A stretch of DNA of 64,000 bases from Variovorax beijingensis (GTDB lineage: Bacteria > Pseudomonadota > Gammaproteobacteria > Burkholderiales > Burkholderiaceae_C). A program made the position numbers and the translations under genes. Within the stretch, counting starts at the first letter, position 1. Each line of letters starts with the position of its first letter. The DNA is taken from positions 860,001 to 924,000 of the forward strand of contig NZ_VIVL01000001.1 in assembly GCF_007828835.1 (NCBI RefSeq), read 5' to 3'. The notes below the pieces were generated by a model. That model worked only from the letters and a program-made list of their open reading frames with translations. It did not search any database and was not told where the DNA came from. Of the stretch, positions 34,277 through 42,218 are shown in pieces.

Positions 34277-34296
34277 GGTTGTTGTTTCTTGTGTTT

Positions 34297-34864
34297 TCGG
34301 GGGCCGGGTCTCGCCCCGGCGGGCGACTCACTTTCTTTTGCTTCGCCAAAAGAAAGTAAGCAAAGAAAAGGCGACCCCACTGTCTGCGACCCTTCGCTTC
34401 GCTACGGGCAACCTGCGGTGCTCGCGTTTCGCGGGGTCTCGCCCAAACTCGCTTCGCTCAAACAAGGGCGAGCCCTGATCCGCGAAACGCTGCGCTCCTC
34501 GGCGCAGCCAGAGGGGAGGGCAAACCGACGGGCCTTTGCTTCGCTCGGCCACCAAGCCACCGCGGCGCGCAGCGCCTGCGGTGGTTGGTATTGGCTGTTG
34601 GGATCGGACTCGGCCGAGCGAAGCGATGGCCTGTCTTCTCCCCACCCCTTCTGGCTGCGCCGAGGAGCGCAGATGGAGGCGGGATCAGGGCCGCAGCTGT
34701 TTGAGCGAAGCGAGTTCTGCGGACCCCCGCCGTAATCGAGCACCGCAGGTTGCCCGCAGCGAAGCGAAGGGACGCAGACAGTAGGGTCGCCTTTTCTTTG
34801 GCTACTTTCTTTTGGCGAAGCAAAAGAAAGTAGCTCGCCCGCCGGGGCGAGACCCGGCCCCCGA
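34297..34864. repeat. large nested palindrome, about 568 bp, non-coding
   Basis: The outer arms, 34297-34424 and 34737-34864 (128 bp each), are reverse complements with only about six mismatches. Inside them further pairs nest: 34446-34463 with 34699-34716 (perfect, AACTCGCTTCGCTCAAAC), a GCTCCTCGGCGCAGCC pair, a GCTTCGCTCGGC pair and a GCGGTGGTTGG pair around the centre near 34575. Each arm also contains the local hairpin CTTTCTTTTG-CTTCGC-CAAAAGAAAG. Open frames within are symmetric by-products. It fills the gap between the YgjP-type gene and the converging SDR gene. A transcript would fold into one very long rod. Confidence 0.9.
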
Positions 34865-34883
34865 CCTCAAAAAAACCAAAAAC

Positions 34884-35654
34884 TCACCGCGCGTGCGTAA
34901 CCCCCCCATCCACCACCAACGTAGACCCCATCACATAGTCCCCCGCCCGGGAGGCAAGATAAATGGCCGCCCCCGCCATGTCCTCCGGCACTCCGATGCG
35001 CCCCGCGGGAATCCGCTCCTTCACCTCGTCGCCATGGTCGCGCGCCAGCTTGTTCATGTCCGAGGCAAACGCCCCGGGTGCAATCGCGCTCACCACGATC
35101 CGGTCCTGCGCGAGCCGCAGCGCCATGCGCCGCGTGAGCTGGATCAGGCCGGCCTTGCTCGCCGCGTAGGAGTACGTCTCCTGCGGATTCACCGAGATGC
35201 CGTCGATCGAAGCAATGTTGATCACCTTCGCGAGGTGGTCGGTCGCCGCCTTCTTGAGCATCGGCGTCAGTGCCTTCGTCAAGAAGAACGGCGTCTTCAG
35301 GTTCAGGTCCACCACCTTGTCCCAGCCGCTCTCGGGAAACTCGTCGTACGGTGCGCCCCAGGCTGCGCCGGCGTTGTTGACCAGGATGTCGAGCGCGTCT
35401 TCATGCTTTGCATAGGCATCGACCAGCGCCTGCGCGCCTTCCAGCGTGGACACGTCGGCCGGCAGCGACACGCAATGGCCGAAGGCCGAAAGCTCCTTGG
35501 CGGTCTGGTCGCAGGCCGCGGCCTTGCGCGCCGAGATGTACACGCGCGCGCCCTGGGCCAGGAAGCCCTCGGCAATCATGCGGCCGATGCCGCGCGAGCC
35601 GCCGGTGATCAAGGCGCTGCGGCCCTTCAGCGAGAAGAGTTGGGTGGTGTCCAT
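34884..35654 (-). CDS. short-chain dehydrogenase/reductase (RhlG-like)
   Basis: A 256-residue classical SDR. The cofactor motif TGGSRGIG (about 17-24), the NNAG motif and the active-site YAASK are present, and the C-terminus ends in VVDGGVTHAR. The overall pattern (SLKGRSALITGGSRGIG, SASSK-type centre) resembles RhlG, an NADPH-dependent ketoacyl reductase, though RhlG's exact substrate is debated. Alone on its strand between the large palindrome and the rluA-like gene. Substrate not predictable. Confidence 0.87.
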   Translation of the reverse strand: MDTTQLFSLKGRSALITGGSRGIGRMIAEGFLAQGARVYISARKAAACDQTAKELSAFGHCVSLPADVSTLEGAQALVDAYAKHEDALDILVNNAGAAWGAPYDEFPESGWDKVVDLNLKTPFFLTKALTPMLKKAATDHLAKVINIASIDGISVNPQETYSYAASKAGLIQLTRRMALRLAQDRIVVSAIAPGAFASDMNKLARDHGDEVKERIPAGRIGVPEDMAGAAIYLASRAGDYVMGSTLVVDGGVTHAR

Positions 35655-35721: not shown

Positions 35722-36633
35722 TCACCTTGGCGGCAGTGCCAGGCTGCGCGGGCTCGTGAAGCTGCGCAGTTCGCCGCTCACCGGGTCCTGGAACGCCACC
35801 GACTTGGCCAGCAGCTGCAAAGGCTTGTCGAAATCGTCGCTGTCGGGCGGCAGCAGCGTGGGGTAGAACGGATCGTTGACGATCGGCATGCCCAGTGCCA
35901 TGCAGTGCACCCGCAGCTGGTGCTTGCGGCCGGTCACCGGCGAGAGCCTGAGCAAGGCGTGGCCGCCCGCCGTCTGTTCCACGGCGATGTGCGTTTCGGA
36001 ATTGGGTTCGCCGGCCTCTTCCTTCACGCGCATGAAGTGGTCGTCGTCCACCAGCCGGCTGCGGTAGGTGCCGGGCACCGACGACACGCCCGGCTGCCAC
36101 GGCACCACGGCCTCGTAGTGCTTGTCGATGCGGCGCTCGGGGAACATGGCCTGGTAGGCGCCGCGCGTTTCGGGGCGTACCGAGAACAGCACCAGCCCCG
36201 CCGTGCTGCGGTCGATGCGGTGCAGCGGCACCAGGTCGTCGAGCTTCAGCTTGCGCTTGAGCCGCACCAGCAGGCTCTCCTGCAGGTACTTGCCGGTGGG
36301 GGTCACGGGCAGGAACGGGGGCTTGTCCGCCACCACGAGCTGGTCGTCCTGGAACAGCACCTGCTCGTCGAAGGGAATGCGCACCTCGGCATCGAGCGTG
36401 CGGTAGTAGTACACGCGCAGGGGTGCCTGGTAGCGGCGCTGCGCGGTCACGGGCACGCCGTGCTCGTCGACCACGTCGCGGGCCTCCATGCGGGCCATCC
36501 AGGCTTCGCGCGTGATCGCGGGGAAGCGTTCGATCAGGAACTCGGCGATGGTGGGCCATGCGCCTTGCGGAAGGCCGACGCAACTCGGGCCGACGCCGTC
36601 GCGCGTGGGCAGGGGCAGGCGCTGGCCCGTCAT
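35722..36633 (-). CDS. RluA-family pseudouridine synthase
   Basis: A 303-residue RNA pseudouridine synthase. The catalytic box is HRIDRSTAGL with the essential Asp, followed by PERRIDKHYEA and the C-terminal TGRKHQLRVH. It lacks an obvious S4 domain; the N-terminal 85 residues instead hold an RluC/D-like lead with REAWMARMEARDV. The target could be rRNA or tRNA. Its start overlaps the stop of the LRR-kinase gene (ATGA), so the two are coupled in translation. Confidence 0.88.
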   Translation of the reverse strand: MTGQRLPLPTRDGVGPSCVGLPQGAWPTIAEFLIERFPAITREAWMARMEARDVVDEHGVPVTAQRRYQAPLRVYYYRTLDAEVRIPFDEQVLFQDDQLVVADKPPFLPVTPTGKYLQESLLVRLKRKLKLDDLVPLHRIDRSTAGLVLFSVRPETRGAYQAMFPERRIDKHYEAVVPWQPGVSSVPGTYRSRLVDDDHFMRVKEEAGEPNSETHIAVEQTAGGHALLRLSPVTGRKHQLRVHCMALGMPIVNDPFYPTLLPPDSDDFDKPLQLLAKSVAFQDPVSGELRSFTSPRSLALPPR

Positions 36634-37940
36634 GGCGAGAGCTCGCGCTCGAGCAGCGCCGCGGCCTCGGCGAACGAGGGCCGCGCGTACACATCGGCCT
36701 GCATGCAGCGGTCCTTCAGCGCAACCATCGCCTGCGGCGGTGCATCGCTGCAGCGCTCGAGCAATTCTTCCAGCAGGCAGCCGAAGGCGCGCATCTCCAG
36801 CCGCTGCAGCGCCCGGGCCTGCGCCGCGTCGAGCGCGCCCGTCATCCAGGCCGCGCCGAAGTCGCCGAGCAGTCCGCCGCCCTGCGCATTCCAGAGGATG
36901 TTGTGCGCATAGAGGTCGCCGTGCAGGATGCCGCGCGCATGCAGGTGCTGCATGGCGGACGCGATGTCGCGGGCGATGCGCAACGCCACGCCGGAGGTCC
37001 ACTGCGCATCGTCCGCATAGACGTCGCGCGTGCAGGATGCGAGGCTTGGCGGGCCGGCGAGCGTGCGGAAGGACGGATCCACCAGCGCCATGACCAGGCC
37101 CTGGGTGCCGTCCGGATGTCCGTCGATCCGGCCTTGCGCAGCAATCAGCGTCGGATGCGCGCCGGCCGCGATGCTGGCGGCCATCTCGCTGTGCGGCCAG
37201 CCGTCGCTGGTGACGGCGCCCTTGAACAGCTTGACGGCCACCGGCTGCGACGCAGGACCCAGCACCGCCTGGTGGATGACTCCCGATGCACCTTCGCCGA
37301 GCTTCTGTCCCAGCGCCAGTTCGCGCCAGTCGACGTGCGGCACCGACTGCGCGGCGATGGCCGCTTCCTCGGCCTGCATGTCGAACGGATTGCCGGCGCC
37401 CGCGAGCCACGCCAGGCGCGGCAGCGCGAGCAGCCATGCGGGCAGCGCCCCGAAGCGGTTGGCTGAAATGCGCAGCAGTTCGAGCCGGCCGCAGGCCGCC
37501 AGCGATTCCGGCAGCGCACGCAGTTGATTGCCGGCGAGCATGAGCTTCTGCATGGCGGTGCACTGGCCCAGCGCCTCGGGCATTGTCTCGATCTGGTTGT
37601 CGGTCAGGATCAGCCAGCGCAGCGCCGGCAGCTGCAACGCGGCGGCAGGCACGGTGCGGATGCGGTTGGCCTTGAACCCGACCATCTCCAGCGCCCGGCA
37701 CTGGCCGATGGATTCGGGCAGCTGCGTGAAGCGGTTGTCGGAGCAGAACAGCACGCGCAGGCGATGCAGCCGGCCGAGGTCTGCGGGCAGCGCGTCGAGC
37801 GCATTGCCGGAGAGGTTCAGGGTCTCGAGCGAATCGGCCAAGTCGAATATTTCGCGCGGGAACTCGGTGAGTCCGCACGAGAGGTCGAGCCTGGTGGCGC
37901 CTGCCAGCCGGCCCGCGCGCAGCTCAGCCAGCGTGTCCAT
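36630..37940 (-). CDS. leucine-rich-repeat protein kinase
   Basis: A 436-residue two-part protein. Residues about 15-195 are seven or so leucine-rich repeats of about 23 residues (for example LETLNLSGNALDALPADLGRL then LRVLFCSDNRFTQLPESIG). Residues 205-436 are an eukaryotic-like kinase: glycine loop LGEGASGVI (214-222), VAVK with K237, the catalytic loop HGDLYAHNIL with D342 and N347, and DFG at 360-362. HRD is HGD, as in many RIO-like or aminoglycoside-type kinases. The C-lobe is short. No signal peptide or membrane helix, so it is cytosolic. It is coupled to the pseudouridine synthase gene by a 4-base overlap. Target unknown. Confidence 0.87.
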   Translation of the reverse strand: MDTLAELRAGRLAGATRLDLSCGLTEFPREIFDLADSLETLNLSGNALDALPADLGRLHRLRVLFCSDNRFTQLPESIGQCRALEMVGFKANRIRTVPAAALQLPALRWLILTDNQIETMPEALGQCTAMQKLMLAGNQLRALPESLAACGRLELLRISANRFGALPAWLLALPRLAWLAGAGNPFDMQAEEAAIAAQSVPHVDWRELALGQKLGEGASGVIHQAVLGPASQPVAVKLFKGAVTSDGWPHSEMAASIAAGAHPTLIAAQGRIDGHPDGTQGLVMALVDPSFRTLAGPPSLASCTRDVYADDAQWTSGVALRIARDIASAMQHLHARGILHGDLYAHNILWNAQGGGLLGDFGAAWMTGALDAAQARALQRLEMRAFGCLLEELLERCSDAPPQAMVALKDRCMQADVYARPSFAEAAALLERELSP

Positions 37941-37949
37941 CCGCCGAGT

Positions 37950-39029
37950 CTAAAGTGCCCGGGCCGTGGCGCTGCGGGGTCCGAAGCGGTAGACGCCGTC
38001 CTCGCCCAGCTCGCGCCGGACCTGGCCCTCGAACCACAGCAGGTGCAGGTGGGCCACGGTCTCGCCCATCGCGAAGGTCATCTGGTGCAGGTCGAGTTCG
38101 CGCTTGAACAGGATCGGCAGGCCCTCGGCCGCGGTCAGCGGGCGCGCGGTGCAGGCTTCGAGCAGTTCGGCCAGGCGGTCGCGGTGGTGCGCCTGCAGCT
38201 GGTCGACGCGGCGGTGAATGCCCGTGAACGGCTTGCCGTGCGAGGGCAGGCCCAGCGTGTCGGCCGGCAGCGCCTTGAACTTGTCGATGCTGTCCAGGAA
38301 GAGCCGCAGCGAATTGGCTTCGGGCTCGCCCGCATGCACGCTCACGTTGGTCGAGATGCGCGGCAGCATCATGTCGCCGCCCAGCAGCAGCTTCAGTTCG
38401 TCGCAGTACAGCGCGATGTGCTCGGGCGCATGGCCGTAGCCGCTGATGCAGCGCCAGGCATGGCCGTTGATGGCCACGGTGTCGCCATCCATCATGCGCG
38501 TGAAGCGGTCGGGCACCGAGGGCACCATGTTGGCGTAGTAGCTGGTGCGCGCGCGGATCTTGGCGATCGCCCCGGGGTCGGTCAGGCCGTGCGAGGCAAA
38601 GAAGCGCGCCGCCGCGTCGCCGCCCGCCAGCGTGTCGCCGGCGGTGCTCAGCACGCGCGCCACGTGGTAGTCGGTCGAGCTGATCCACAGCGGCGCGTTC
38701 CAGCGCGTGCACAGCCACTCAGCCAGGCCGATGTGGTCGGGGTGCATGTGGGTGACGATCACGCGCAGGATCGGCAGGCCCTGCAGCTGCGTTTCGAACA
38801 CCTGCTCCCACTGCGCGCGGGCTTCGTCGTGCGCGATGCAGCAGTCGACCACGGTCCAGCCCTCGACGCCGTCGAGGCTGTCGCGCAGCAGCCAGAGGTT
38901 GATGTGGTCGAGCGCGAACGGCAGCCGCATGCGGATCCATCGCACGCCGGGCGCGACTTCCAGTGCTTCGCCGGGAGCGGGCAGGGTGTCGCCCAGGGGG
39001 TAGTGGAGTTCGCGTTCGAGGAGGTTCAT
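37950..39029 (-). CDS. MBL-fold metallo-hydrolase (glyoxalase II-like)
   Basis: A 359-residue metallo-beta-lactamase-superfamily enzyme with motif THMHPDHIGLAEWL, a later histidine in GYGHAPEHIALY, the metal Asp in LLGGDMMLP and a final LGLPSHG histidine. A C-terminal region of about 90 residues adds a winged-helix-like segment (TVAHLHLLWFEGQVRRELGEDGVYRF), the LACTB2/RNase-Z-like extension found in acyl-CoA thioester hydrolases of this group. The start codon has no Shine-Dalgarno; a 20-bp palindrome lies 7 nt upstream. Divergent from a MerR regulator. Confidence 0.85.
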   Translation of the reverse strand: MNLLERELHYPLGDTLPAPGEALEVAPGVRWIRMRLPFALDHINLWLLRDSLDGVEGWTVVDCCIAHDEARAQWEQVFETQLQGLPILRVIVTHMHPDHIGLAEWLCTRWNAPLWISSTDYHVARVLSTAGDTLAGGDAAARFFASHGLTDPGAIAKIRARTSYYANMVPSVPDRFTRMMDGDTVAINGHAWRCISGYGHAPEHIALYCDELKLLLGGDMMLPRISTNVSVHAGEPEANSLRLFLDSIDKFKALPADTLGLPSHGKPFTGIHRRVDQLQAHHRDRLAELLEACTARPLTAAEGLPILFKRELDLHQMTFAMGETVAHLHLLWFEGQVRRELGEDGVYRFGPRSATARAL

Positions 39030-40397: not shown

Positions 40398-42218
40398 ATG
40401 TTCCCGCAGCGTCTCGATTCACCGCTGGCCTACGACATCGCCAAGGCGATGATCGACGGGTTCAATCGCCACTACACCCTGTTCCGTGCCGAGTCGGCGC
40501 GCGCCAAGCACCGCTTCGAAACGGCCGACTGGCACGGCCAGCAGCGCGCGCAGCGCGAGCGCATCGAGTTCTACGACTTGCGCGTGAACGAGGCCGTGGC
40601 CCGGCTCGAGAAGGAATTCAAGGCCGGCGACCAGCCGATGGAGGTGTGGCACCAGGTCAAGCTGCACTACATCGGCCTGCTGGTGGACCACCACCAGCCC
40701 GAGCTGGCCGAGAGCTTCTTCAATTCGGTGACCACGAAGATCCTGCACCGGGCCTATTTCCAGAACGACTTCATCTTCGTTCGCCCGGCCATCAGCACCG
40801 AATACATCGAGCCGCGCGGTGCGCCCACGTACCGGCCCTACTACCCTTCGCATGCCACGCTGGCCGACACCATCGAGCAGATGCTGGACGACTACGGCCT
40901 GCAGGGCAGCTTTGCCAACAAGCGGCGCGACGCCGAGCGCGTGGCGCACGCCATCATGGGGCGCTTCCACCAGGTGAAGCTGCGCGCCAACTTCCAGCTG
41001 CAGGTGCTCTCGGGGCTGTTCTACCGCAACAAGGGCGCCTATGTGGTGGGCAAGATCATGAACGGCTTCGTCGAGCTCCCGTTCTCGCTGCCGATCCTGC
41101 ACGACAGCCAGGGCAAGTTCTACGTGGACGCGGCGCTCTTCGGCGAGGACGACCTGCAGATGCTCTTCAGCTTTGCGCGCGCCTACTTCATGGTCGACAT
41201 GGAGGTGCCCTCGGCCTGCGTGCAGTTCCTGCGCTCGCTCATGCCGCGCAAGCCGCGCGCCGAAATCTACAACGCGCTGGGCCTCGCCAAGCAGGGCAAG
41301 ACGCTGTTCTACCGCGACTTCCTCTCGCACCTGAACTACTCGAGCGACCGCTTCCGCATTGCGCCCGGCATCAAGGGCATGGTCATGCTGGTGTTCGACC
41401 TGCCGTCGTTCCCGTTCGTGTTCAAGGTCATCAAGGACTTCTATCCGCCGCAGAAGGACACCACGCGCGAGCAGATCAAGGGCAAGTACATGCTCGTGAA
41501 GCAGCACGACCGCGTGGGCCGCATGGCCGACACGCTGGAGTACAGCGACGTGGGTTTTCCGCTCGACCGGTTCGAGCCCGAGCTGATCGAGGAAATCCGC
41601 AAGTTCGCCCCCAGCCAGCTCGAGATCGGCGACCGCGACGGCAACGGGGAGATGGAGCTCGTGCTCAAGCACGTCTACATCGAGCGCCGCATGATCCCGC
41701 TCAACATCTTCCTGCAGGAGGCCTTCGACACGCTGGCCAATCCGGAGAGCCCGGCGCATGCCAGGCGCGCGAAAGAGCAGCTCGAGCACGCGGTGGTCGA
41801 GTACGGCAACGCCATCAAGGACATGGTGGCGGCCAACATCTTTCCGGGCGACATGCTGTGGAAGAACTTCGGCGTCACGCGCGGCGGCAAGGTGGTCTTC
41901 TACGACTACGACGAGATCGAATACATCACCGACTGCCAGTTCCGCAAGGTGCCCGCGCCGCGCAACGAGGAAGACGAGATGAGCGGCGAAGTCTGGTATT
42001 CGGTGGGCCCGAAGGACGTGTTCCCCGAGACCTTCGGGCCTTTCCTGCTCGGCAACGACGCGGTGCGCGAAGCCTTCATGGCGCACCATGCCGACCTGCT
42101 CGACGCCGCCTTCTGGCAGCACCACAAGGAACGCATCCGGGCCGGCCAGATGCTGGATGTGTTCCCGTACGAAGAGTCGCAGCGCTTTCCGCACGAAGGC
42201 CATGCGACCCATTTCTGA
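40398..42218 (+). CDS. aceK: isocitrate dehydrogenase kinase/phosphatase
   Basis: A 606-residue bifunctional AceK that phosphorylates and dephosphorylates isocitrate dehydrogenase, switching carbon between the TCA cycle and the glyoxylate bypass. The nucleotide-binding stretch [20 protein letters not shown] (about residues 316-340) and the catalytic DFG-like DYDEIE region with [17 protein letters not shown] are present. Length is usual (about 580-610). It is separate from aceA/aceB, which are not in the window. Confidence 0.97.

What the first reader, a model, noticed from the sequence alone, without database searches (positions are those of the whole stretch)
36630..37940. Bacterial leucine-rich-repeat protein kinase coupled to an RNA pseudouridine synthase
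An LRR array joined to an eukaryotic-like kinase is a plant-receptor-like layout, rare in bacteria. Here it is cytosolic, lacks a membrane anchor, has HGD in place of HRD and overlaps a pseudouridine synthase gene. The LRRs may recognise a protein and the kinase act on it or on the synthase.
Basis: partly seen in the sequence, partly recalled or inferred. Interest (0 to 1): 0.6.

Follow-up and report, generated by a model that had tools for sequence, protein, structure and literature searches.

The report
Bacterial leucine-rich-repeat protein kinase
This soil bacterium carries an intact gene for a soluble enzyme that joins a protein-binding repeat domain to a stripped-down protein kinase; it belongs to a family found in many bacteria, one probable Vibrio member of which has been studied, and the overlapping RNA-modifying gene is a neighbour only in its close relatives.

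Summary
Window 36630-37940, minus strand, encodes a 436-residue protein: eight leucine-rich repeats (LRR) of 23 residues fused to a protein-kinase fold. The key catalytic residues, HGD included, are kept in 74 of 74 aligned rows. Its stop overlaps the start of an RluA-type pseudouridine synthase (ATGA).

The fusion is not rare: 96 of 101 genomes of the genus and 34 of 299 of the phylum carry it, and a scan also found it in Bacteroidota. Public records already name it. By published residue numbers, Vibrio splendidus STPKLRR, reported to phosphorylate a host protein on serine, is very probably a member.

The synthase link is local. In linked Variovorax loci the 4-base overlap is common (60 of 73), but 15 of 94 genus genomes with both genes have them apart, and none of 96 loci outside the linked Variovorax/Xenophilus block has a synthase near the kinase.

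Less expected: the kinase lacks the activation segment that normally holds peptide substrate, and the concave LRR face is far better conserved (87%) than other exposed LRR positions (53%). I infer a kinase acting in the bacterium's own cytosol whose LRR docks a conserved, still unknown partner. Secretion is not excluded.

The parts
36630..37940 (-). LRR-kinase gene, 436 aa (P0001)
37341..37940 (-). LRR domain, residues 1-200: eight beta strands spaced 23 residues; strongly conserved concave face
36633..37322 (-). kinase domain, residues 207-436: G215xG217xxG220, K237, E252, H340-G341-D342, N347, D360-F361-G362; alpha-F begins at 372, so no activation segment
36915..36923 (-). HGD catalytic motif, residues 340-342
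35722..36633 (-). RluA-type pseudouridine synthase, 303 aa (P0002); ATGA overlap with the kinase stop; neighbour in Variovorax/Xenophilus only
37950..39029 (-). metallo-beta-lactamase-fold hydrolase, 9 bases upstream of the kinase; the steadier neighbour within the genus
34884..35654 (-). short-chain dehydrogenase; closely follows the kinase in 12 of 15 loci where the synthase is elsewhere

Best explanation
The gene encodes a soluble, catalytically competent Ser/Thr-type protein kinase of an existing bacterial LRR-kinase family. The N-terminal LRR solenoid uses its concave face to hold a conserved protein partner. The kinase domain, which lacks the activation segment and part of the C-lobe that normally hold peptide substrate, phosphorylates the docked partner. 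HGD (a non-RD type, recalled term) and the missing activation segment argue that it is not switched by activation-loop phosphorylation. In this genome it most likely acts inside the bacterial cell. The pseudouridine synthase is a lineage-specific, probably co-translated neighbour, most simply moved in between the kinase and a dehydrogenase in one branch. Shown here: fold (predicted), catalytic residues, conservation, gene order, no type III SctJ over the cut-off. Reported by others for a probable member: protein serine phosphorylation. Inferred: docking by the LRR face, cytosolic role. Unknown: the substrate.
For: G215, G217, G220, K237, E252, H340, G341, D342, N347, D360 and G362 are each at 1.00 in a 74-row alignment, window row included (F361 0.91). 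AlphaFold mean pLDDT 93.6, pTM 0.91, DFG at 360-362, alpha-F from 372. Kinase half: TNNI3K Z 22.4, rmsd 3.3, 219 residues; BRAF Z 22.0, rmsd 3.3, 215. LRR half: SHOC2 Z 25.6, rmsd 2.1, 190. Pfam PK_Tyr_Ser-Thr matches positions 2-152 of 258 at residues 209-367, leaving 69 residues for 106 positions. Concave LRR positions average 87% identity against 53% for the other exposed positions examined. L227 (Vibrio sp. THAF191d) has VLGQG from residue 208, matching the published LGQG 209-212 and VLGXG of STPKLRR, reported to phosphorylate tropomodulin at S52 in vitro (PMC10237653). SctJ (TIGR02544) is below the cut-off in this genome and unmatched in the seven Bacteroidota carriers. Purifying selection.
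Against: No substrate or partner is known for this protein. The published activity is one report, in which the kinase is a secreted effector. This genome has two type VI TssB genes, and a VgrG-like gene lies near the kinase in many Pseudomonas loci and one Burkholderia locus, so secretion is not excluded. A kinase without a substrate-holding loop could be an ATPase switch or act on a non-protein substrate; Pfam's Kdo kinase model matches above its cut-off (32.8 against 21.3 bits). Part of the concave-face conservation may be structural, or an intramolecular contact; no control LRR family was run. Some carriers do have type III SctJ: 5 of 22, and 31 of the 96 genus carriers.
Confidence: 0.55

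Rival explanations
1. The kinase and the pseudouridine synthase form a functional unit: the kinase phosphorylates or regulates the synthase, or they must be made together.
For: ATGA overlap in the window; 79 of 94 genus genomes with both have them adjacent on one strand; the 4-base overlap (ATGA or GTGA) is kept in 60 of 73 linked loci held, some genomes counted twice (31 of 44 among L001-L110, 29 of 29 among L139-L167).
Against: 15 of 94 genus genomes unlinked, 2 of these over 1 Mb apart on one contig, with the block otherwise mostly intact. No synthase relative in any of 96 kinase loci outside the linked block. Both genes persist where unlinked.
Confidence: 0.12
2. It is a type III effector acting in eukaryotic cells, as reported for Vibrio splendidus STPKLRR.
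For: Probable family member reported as type III secreted and phosphorylating host tropomodulin (PMC10237653); 32 of 101 genus genomes hold SctJ over the cut-off.
Against: SctJ best 65.2 bits against 161.95 in this genome, in a 650-residue frame (read as flagellar FliF by recall), and no match in the seven Bacteroidota carriers; 65 of 96 genus carriers have no SctJ over the cut-off; concave LRR face nearly fixed across bacteria of unlike life styles. Only SctJ was tested for type III; no named control genome is over its cut-off, but genus and Pseudomonas-family genomes are, so the model works.
Confidence: 0.05
3. It is a type VI secretion cargo.
For: Two TssB (PF05591) genes in this genome; 9 of 22 carriers have TssB over the cut-off. 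A VgrG-like gene (Phage_GPD, 192.8 bits in L039 and 249.6 in L062) lies downstream in many Pseudomonas loci and in one Burkholderia locus, L062.
Against: 13 of 22 carriers without TssB at this threshold, seven of them Bacteroidota (whose variant this model may miss, by recall); the Burkholderia VgrG is only 22-25% identical to the Pseudomonas ones; in Pseudomonas a YebC gene on the other strand lies between; no VgrG-like hit in the window.
Confidence: 0.05
4. It is an ATPase switch or a small-molecule/lipid kinase, as RIO-type atypical kinases are thought to be switches (recalled), rather than a protein kinase.
For: 9 residues between DFG and alpha-F; shortened C-lobe. HGD in place of HRD. Pfam Kdo/WaaP match above its cut-off (32.8 against 21.3 bits); weak Bud32 matches below cut-off.
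Against: The probable Vibrio member was reported to phosphorylate a protein serine in vitro. PK_Tyr_Ser-Thr and Pkinase score higher than Kdo; the best listed structural matches of the kinase half are TKL/TK protein kinases (group names recalled).
Confidence: 0.18
5. It is part of an anti-phage defence system.
For: PADLOC models mad6 (5.8e-17) and PD-T4-6 (3.8e-11) match the kinase half.
Against: NCBIfam MADS6 40.9 bits against a cut-off of 460. Of the two flanking proteins scanned, one has no PADLOC match and one only a marginal one (E 0.0057). Near-universal in the genus at a stable place in the loci compared.
Confidence: 0.05

Closest known systems
Vibrio splendidus STPKLRR (GenBank MBY7732200.1; PMC10237653)
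   Same: LRRs at 35-168 and kinase at 203-403 in the paper, against about 17-190 and 207-436 here; glycine loop VLGQG from 208 in L227 (Vibrio sp. THAF191d), which is 46% identical to the window protein over residues 1-397.
   Different: Reported as a type III effector acting on sea-cucumber tropomodulin; this genome has no SctJ over the cut-off. The STPKLRR sequence itself was not fetched or compared.
Public annotation 'leucine-rich repeat-containing protein kinase family protein' (e.g. BEI72309.1, Paraburkholderia)
   Same: 60.8% identity over 93% of the query; the name stands in 2 of 15 plasmid-collection records matched; 12 of the 15 show no listed gene there, the collection's gene table being incomplete.
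   Different: Only a name; no function in the record.
LRR Ser/Thr/Tyr kinase of Pseudomonas aeruginosa, gi 9948555 (PMC1262709, 2005)
   Same: LRR plus kinase architecture reported in a bacterium.
   Different: Sequence not compared here; no function in the passages seen.
Plant LRR receptor-like kinases
   Same: LRR then kinase.
   Different: No membrane segment here, kinase without activation segment.
SHOC2 and Leptospira LRR proteins (LRR half); TNNI3K and BRAF (kinase half)
   Same: Domain folds.
   Different: The listed matches fit one half or the other, not the fusion.

Membership tests
Bacterial LRR-kinase family (public name; probably includes STPKLRR) | full-length homology, LRR N-terminal and kinase C-terminal | tested here: met
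   341 relatives found, 80 kept, the best covering residues 1-436; named member 60.8% identical
Bacterial LRR-kinase family (public name; probably includes STPKLRR) | STPKLRR itself is homologous | tested here: inconclusive
   Published domain limits and LGQG at 209-212 agree with relatives: VLGQG from 208 in 6 of 9 distinct relatives read, one of them a named Vibrio; its sequence was not compared
Bacterial LRR-kinase family (public name; probably includes STPKLRR) | protein Ser kinase activity | not testable with these tools
   catalytic residues kept; activity reported only for STPKLRR
Eukaryotic-like (Hanks) protein kinase | glycine loop, Lys, Glu, catalytic Asp/Asn, DFG | tested here: met
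Eukaryotic-like (Hanks) protein kinase | activation segment with APE and P+1 loop (recalled definition) | tested here: not met
   alpha-F begins 9 residues after DFG in the model; Pfam match ends at position 152 of 258
Plant LRR receptor-like kinase | signal peptide, extracellular LRR, transmembrane helix | tested here: not met
   best 19-residue hydropathy 1.28; no signal-peptide program was run
LRRK2/Roco | ROC-COR GTPase between LRR and kinase | tested here: not met
   no such Pfam match; LRR runs straight into the kinase
Type III effector | type III secretion apparatus in the genome | tested here: not met
   SctJ not over the cut-off in G000; one component tested
Type VI cargo | type VI apparatus in the genome and linkage to VgrG | tested here: inconclusive
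   two TssB genes in G000 but no VgrG-like gene in the window
XopAC/XopL/XopAE effectors | NCBIfam cut-off | tested here: not met
   107 against 450; 53.1 against 500; 65.1 against 600
MADS6 defence kinase | NCBIfam cut-off | tested here: not met
   40.9 against 460
Kdo/WaaP kinase family (PF06293) | Pfam gathering score | tested here: met
   32.8 bits against 21.3, but only over residues 306-357 around the catalytic loop, and below the two protein-kinase models
RluA family (neighbour) | PF00849 catalytic domain | tested here: met
   94.8 bits, cut-off 26.8; TIGR00005 126.8, below its cut-off 192.7

The most novel reading that the evidence does not exclude
The family is an old intrabacterial LRR scaffold kinase: the nearly fixed concave LRR face docks one conserved bacterial protein and so replaces the missing peptide-holding loop, giving kinase specificity by an LRR dock alone. 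The host-directed action reported in Vibrio would then be a secondary use or a misreading.
Probability: 0.33. Interest if true: 0.5.

Novelty: new member of a known kind. Interest (0 to 1): 0.27.

Why it matters
It tempers a tempting story (kinase plus RNA-modifying enzyme) and shows that LRR-kinase fusions are a widespread, conserved bacterial gene family whose ordinary role is unknown. If the one published member is of this family, the many carriers without the tested type III marker make the claim of a dedicated effector directly testable.

Tried and rejected
Functional link to the synthase as a family trait: rejected on gene order. The largest gap (396) comes from a kinase match split in two (G590); the next is 124.

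Conserved neighbours as a clue to function: flanking ORFs were clustered in 38 named loci and in 62 loci of several families (only the 22 widest clusters printed). Besides the kinase, its antisense ORFs and common transporter, regulator and dehydrogenase families, I saw mostly lineage synteny. The exception is a VgrG-like gene: 19 of 38 loci, by my reading 18 Pseudomonas and one Burkholderia; searches show dissimilar VgrGs (22-25% identity between the Burkholderia one and the others). A YebC gene is near the kinase in 25 of 107 loci, all Pseudomonas or their unnamed family, plus a 33% relative in L183. MsrB- and SelO-like genes near four Hymenobacteraceae loci are named by recall. (TssB in this genome) made me lower the best explanation from 0.6 to 0.55, the novel case from 0.35 to 0.33, type III from 0.08 to 0.05 and the switch rival from 0.2 to 0.18, to make room for the type VI rival.

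Phage origin: 3 phage records match, to the LRR part only. Structure search: RIO, Bud32 and Kdo kinases do not appear among the listed rows; the lists are filled by common kinases and LRRs, so this excludes nothing. Transfer between phyla: the seven Hymenobacter/Solirubrum rows form one group beside Gallionellaceae with unstarred support 91/91; donor and direction not settled. Tree position of the Variovorax genomes with unlinked synthase was not tested, so 'moved in' rather than 'moved out' rests on two outgroup loci without it (L192, L205). Literature: ten completed searches (two gave nothing) led to two papers used; others were seen as listings only. Absence from this library is not absence from print.

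Full report
What is there. The finding lies on the minus strand. The ORF 36630-37940 starts with ATG and gives 436 residues. It gave the only match at E up to 0.001 in the genome. The window lies in a 6.94 Mb genome in 37 contigs; the closest named kinases are from Variovorax beijingensis and V. paradoxus, 93-94% identical, so I take the organism for a Variovorax. Pfam places LRR stretches within residues 37-161 and a protein-kinase domain from 209. The AlphaFold model is confident (mean pLDDT 93.6, pTM 0.91), with eight LRR strands spaced by exactly 23 residues followed by the kinase domain. Structural matches: SHOC2 for the LRR half (Z 25.6, rmsd 2.1, 190 aligned), TNNI3K and BRAF for the kinase half (Z 22.4 and 22.0, rmsd 3.3, 219 and 215 aligned).

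Kinase anatomy. G215, G217, G220, K237, E252, H340, G341, D342, N347, D360 and G362 are each at 1.00 in a 74-row alignment, window row included, that spans Pseudomonadota and Bacteroidota; F361 is at 0.91. In the earlier 110-row set 109 or 110 rows carry each, G341 in 108. Pfam's kinase model stops matching at position 152 of 258, with 69 residues left for the other 106 positions. The parts that normally hold a peptide substrate (APE/P+1 loop and alpha-G, by recall) are therefore absent or reduced. A Gly before the catalytic Asp makes this a non-RD kinase (recalled term), in line with no activation-loop switch. Pfam's Kdo kinase model also matches above its cut-off around the catalytic loop, which keeps a non-protein substrate open.

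LRR anatomy. Over the same 74 rows the exposed concave positions average 87% identity and the other exposed LRR positions examined 53%; the LRR as a whole (0.73) is better conserved than the kinase half (0.64). F65, W109, K132, L155, R157 and W178 are at 1.00. Some of this may be structural and no control family was run, but such a face suggests one fixed partner rather than a changing one. It could also be an intramolecular contact with the kinase; I could not see coordinates.

Distribution (own genome counted). The kinase is in 96 of 101 genomes of the genus at E up to 1e-40 and 34 of 299 of the phylum (G348 in two pieces, G349 partial). In the family, 101 of 200 have some match at E up to 0.001, but only 35 of 200 below 1e-100; the next is 9e-17, and the weaker ones listed cover the kinase or LRR part. 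A scan of named genomes found 341 relatives and kept the 80 best, which come from Variovorax, Xenophilus, Pseudomonas, Burkholderia and relatives, Gallionellaceae, Hymenobacter and Solirubrum. The seven Hymenobacter/Solirubrum proteins so found are 64-68% identical to the window's and group beside Gallionellaceae (91/91, unstarred). 15 plasmid-collection records carry it, 13 of them over 1.8 Mb. The fusion is conserved and not rare.

Link to the pseudouridine synthase. In the window the genes overlap as ATGA. Within the genus 94 genomes have both; in 79 they are adjacent on one strand, in 15 not (13 on different contigs, 2 over 1 Mb apart on one contig). Of 73 linked loci held, 60 have a 4-base ATGA or GTGA overlap (some genomes counted twice), so co-translation is probably kept in that branch. 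In all 15 unlinked loci the kinase sits after the metallo-beta-lactamase-fold gene and no synthase lies in the stretch fetched; in 12 of 15 the dehydrogenase follows closely. Two other genera (L192, L205) have the kinase after the hydrolase without the synthase too, L192 with the dehydrogenase directly behind. Of 110 loci, 44 have the synthase beside the kinase, all Variovorax or Xenophilus (L001 and L082 by kinship); 66 do not (28 of these had about 1.5 kb of flank or less). With wider flanks and E up to 1e-4, 11 of 107 loci had a synthase relative, again Variovorax or Xenophilus; 96 had none. The simplest account is that the synthase gene moved in between kinase and dehydrogenase in one branch. 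The upstream hydrolase is the steadier neighbour, found in 28 of those 107 loci, all of this family.

Known relatives. An LRR-bearing Ser/Thr/Tyr kinase of P. aeruginosa was listed in 2005 (PMC1262709, two passages seen). In 2023 STPKLRR of Vibrio splendidus was reported as a type III effector that phosphorylates sea-cucumber tropomodulin at S52 and aids internalisation (PMC10237653; abstract, outline, sections 6 and 9 and further passages seen). It has LRRs at 35-168, kinase at 203-403 and LGQG at 209-212. Of 9 distinct relatives from the class read, 6 have VLGQG from residue 208 (one of them the named Vibrio sp. THAF191d, L227, with HGDLYAHN at 337); one has ILGQG at 208, the Aeromonas one VLGEG at 212, and in one the pattern was not found. 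STPKLRR is thus very probably in this family, though its sequence was not compared. If so, the family can phosphorylate protein serine despite its reduced C-lobe.

Secretion. The type III marker SctJ (TIGR02544, cut-off 161.95 bits) scores 65.2 at best in this genome, in a 650-residue frame that I take for flagellar FliF (recalled). 32 of 101 genus genomes are over the cut-off, 31 of them among the 96 carriers. Of 22 carriers tested apart, 5 are over the cut-off; the seven Bacteroidota have no match. None of the 14 named control genomes is over it; 4 ring below it. The type VI marker TssB is present in this genome twice and in 9 of 22 carriers (of the 14 controls, E. coli only). VgrG-like genes lie near the kinase in many Pseudomonas loci and one Burkholderia locus, but not in the window. 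A type III route is thus unlikely here; a type VI route is not excluded.

Verdict. Confirmed observation, partly supported interpretation, new member of a known kind. The best-supported mechanism is a soluble LRR-docked protein kinase acting in the bacterium's own cytoplasm; the substrate is unknown. The reduced kinase and the fixed LRR face keep some interest.

Noticed in passing
window 34278-34883: A roughly 600-base near-palindromic repeat (arms of 159 bases, 87% complementary, plus an inner 61-base pair); five further near-full copies at 89-91% identity and several fragments lie elsewhere in the genome. ORFs called in it look spurious.
   Followed up: partly
window 37950-39029: Metallo-beta-lactamase-fold hydrolase 9 bases upstream of the kinase stays beside it in all 15 Variovorax loci where the synthase is elsewhere, and in two other genera (L192, L205).
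   Followed up: partly
L033, L036, L038, L045, L067, L073, L079: Hymenobacter and Solirubrum (Bacteroidota) carry the kinase at 64-68% identity to the betaproteobacterial one, as expected from transfer between phyla.
   Followed up: partly
L039, L047, L049, L053 and other Pseudomonas loci, about 6.4-9 kb; L062 6692-8836: A VgrG-like gene lies downstream of the kinase in many Pseudomonas loci, with a YebC gene on the other strand between, and a dissimilar VgrG in one Burkholderia locus.
   Followed up: partly
window 40398-42218: AceK, isocitrate dehydrogenase kinase/phosphatase, lies a few genes away; no link to the LRR kinase was tested.
   Followed up: no
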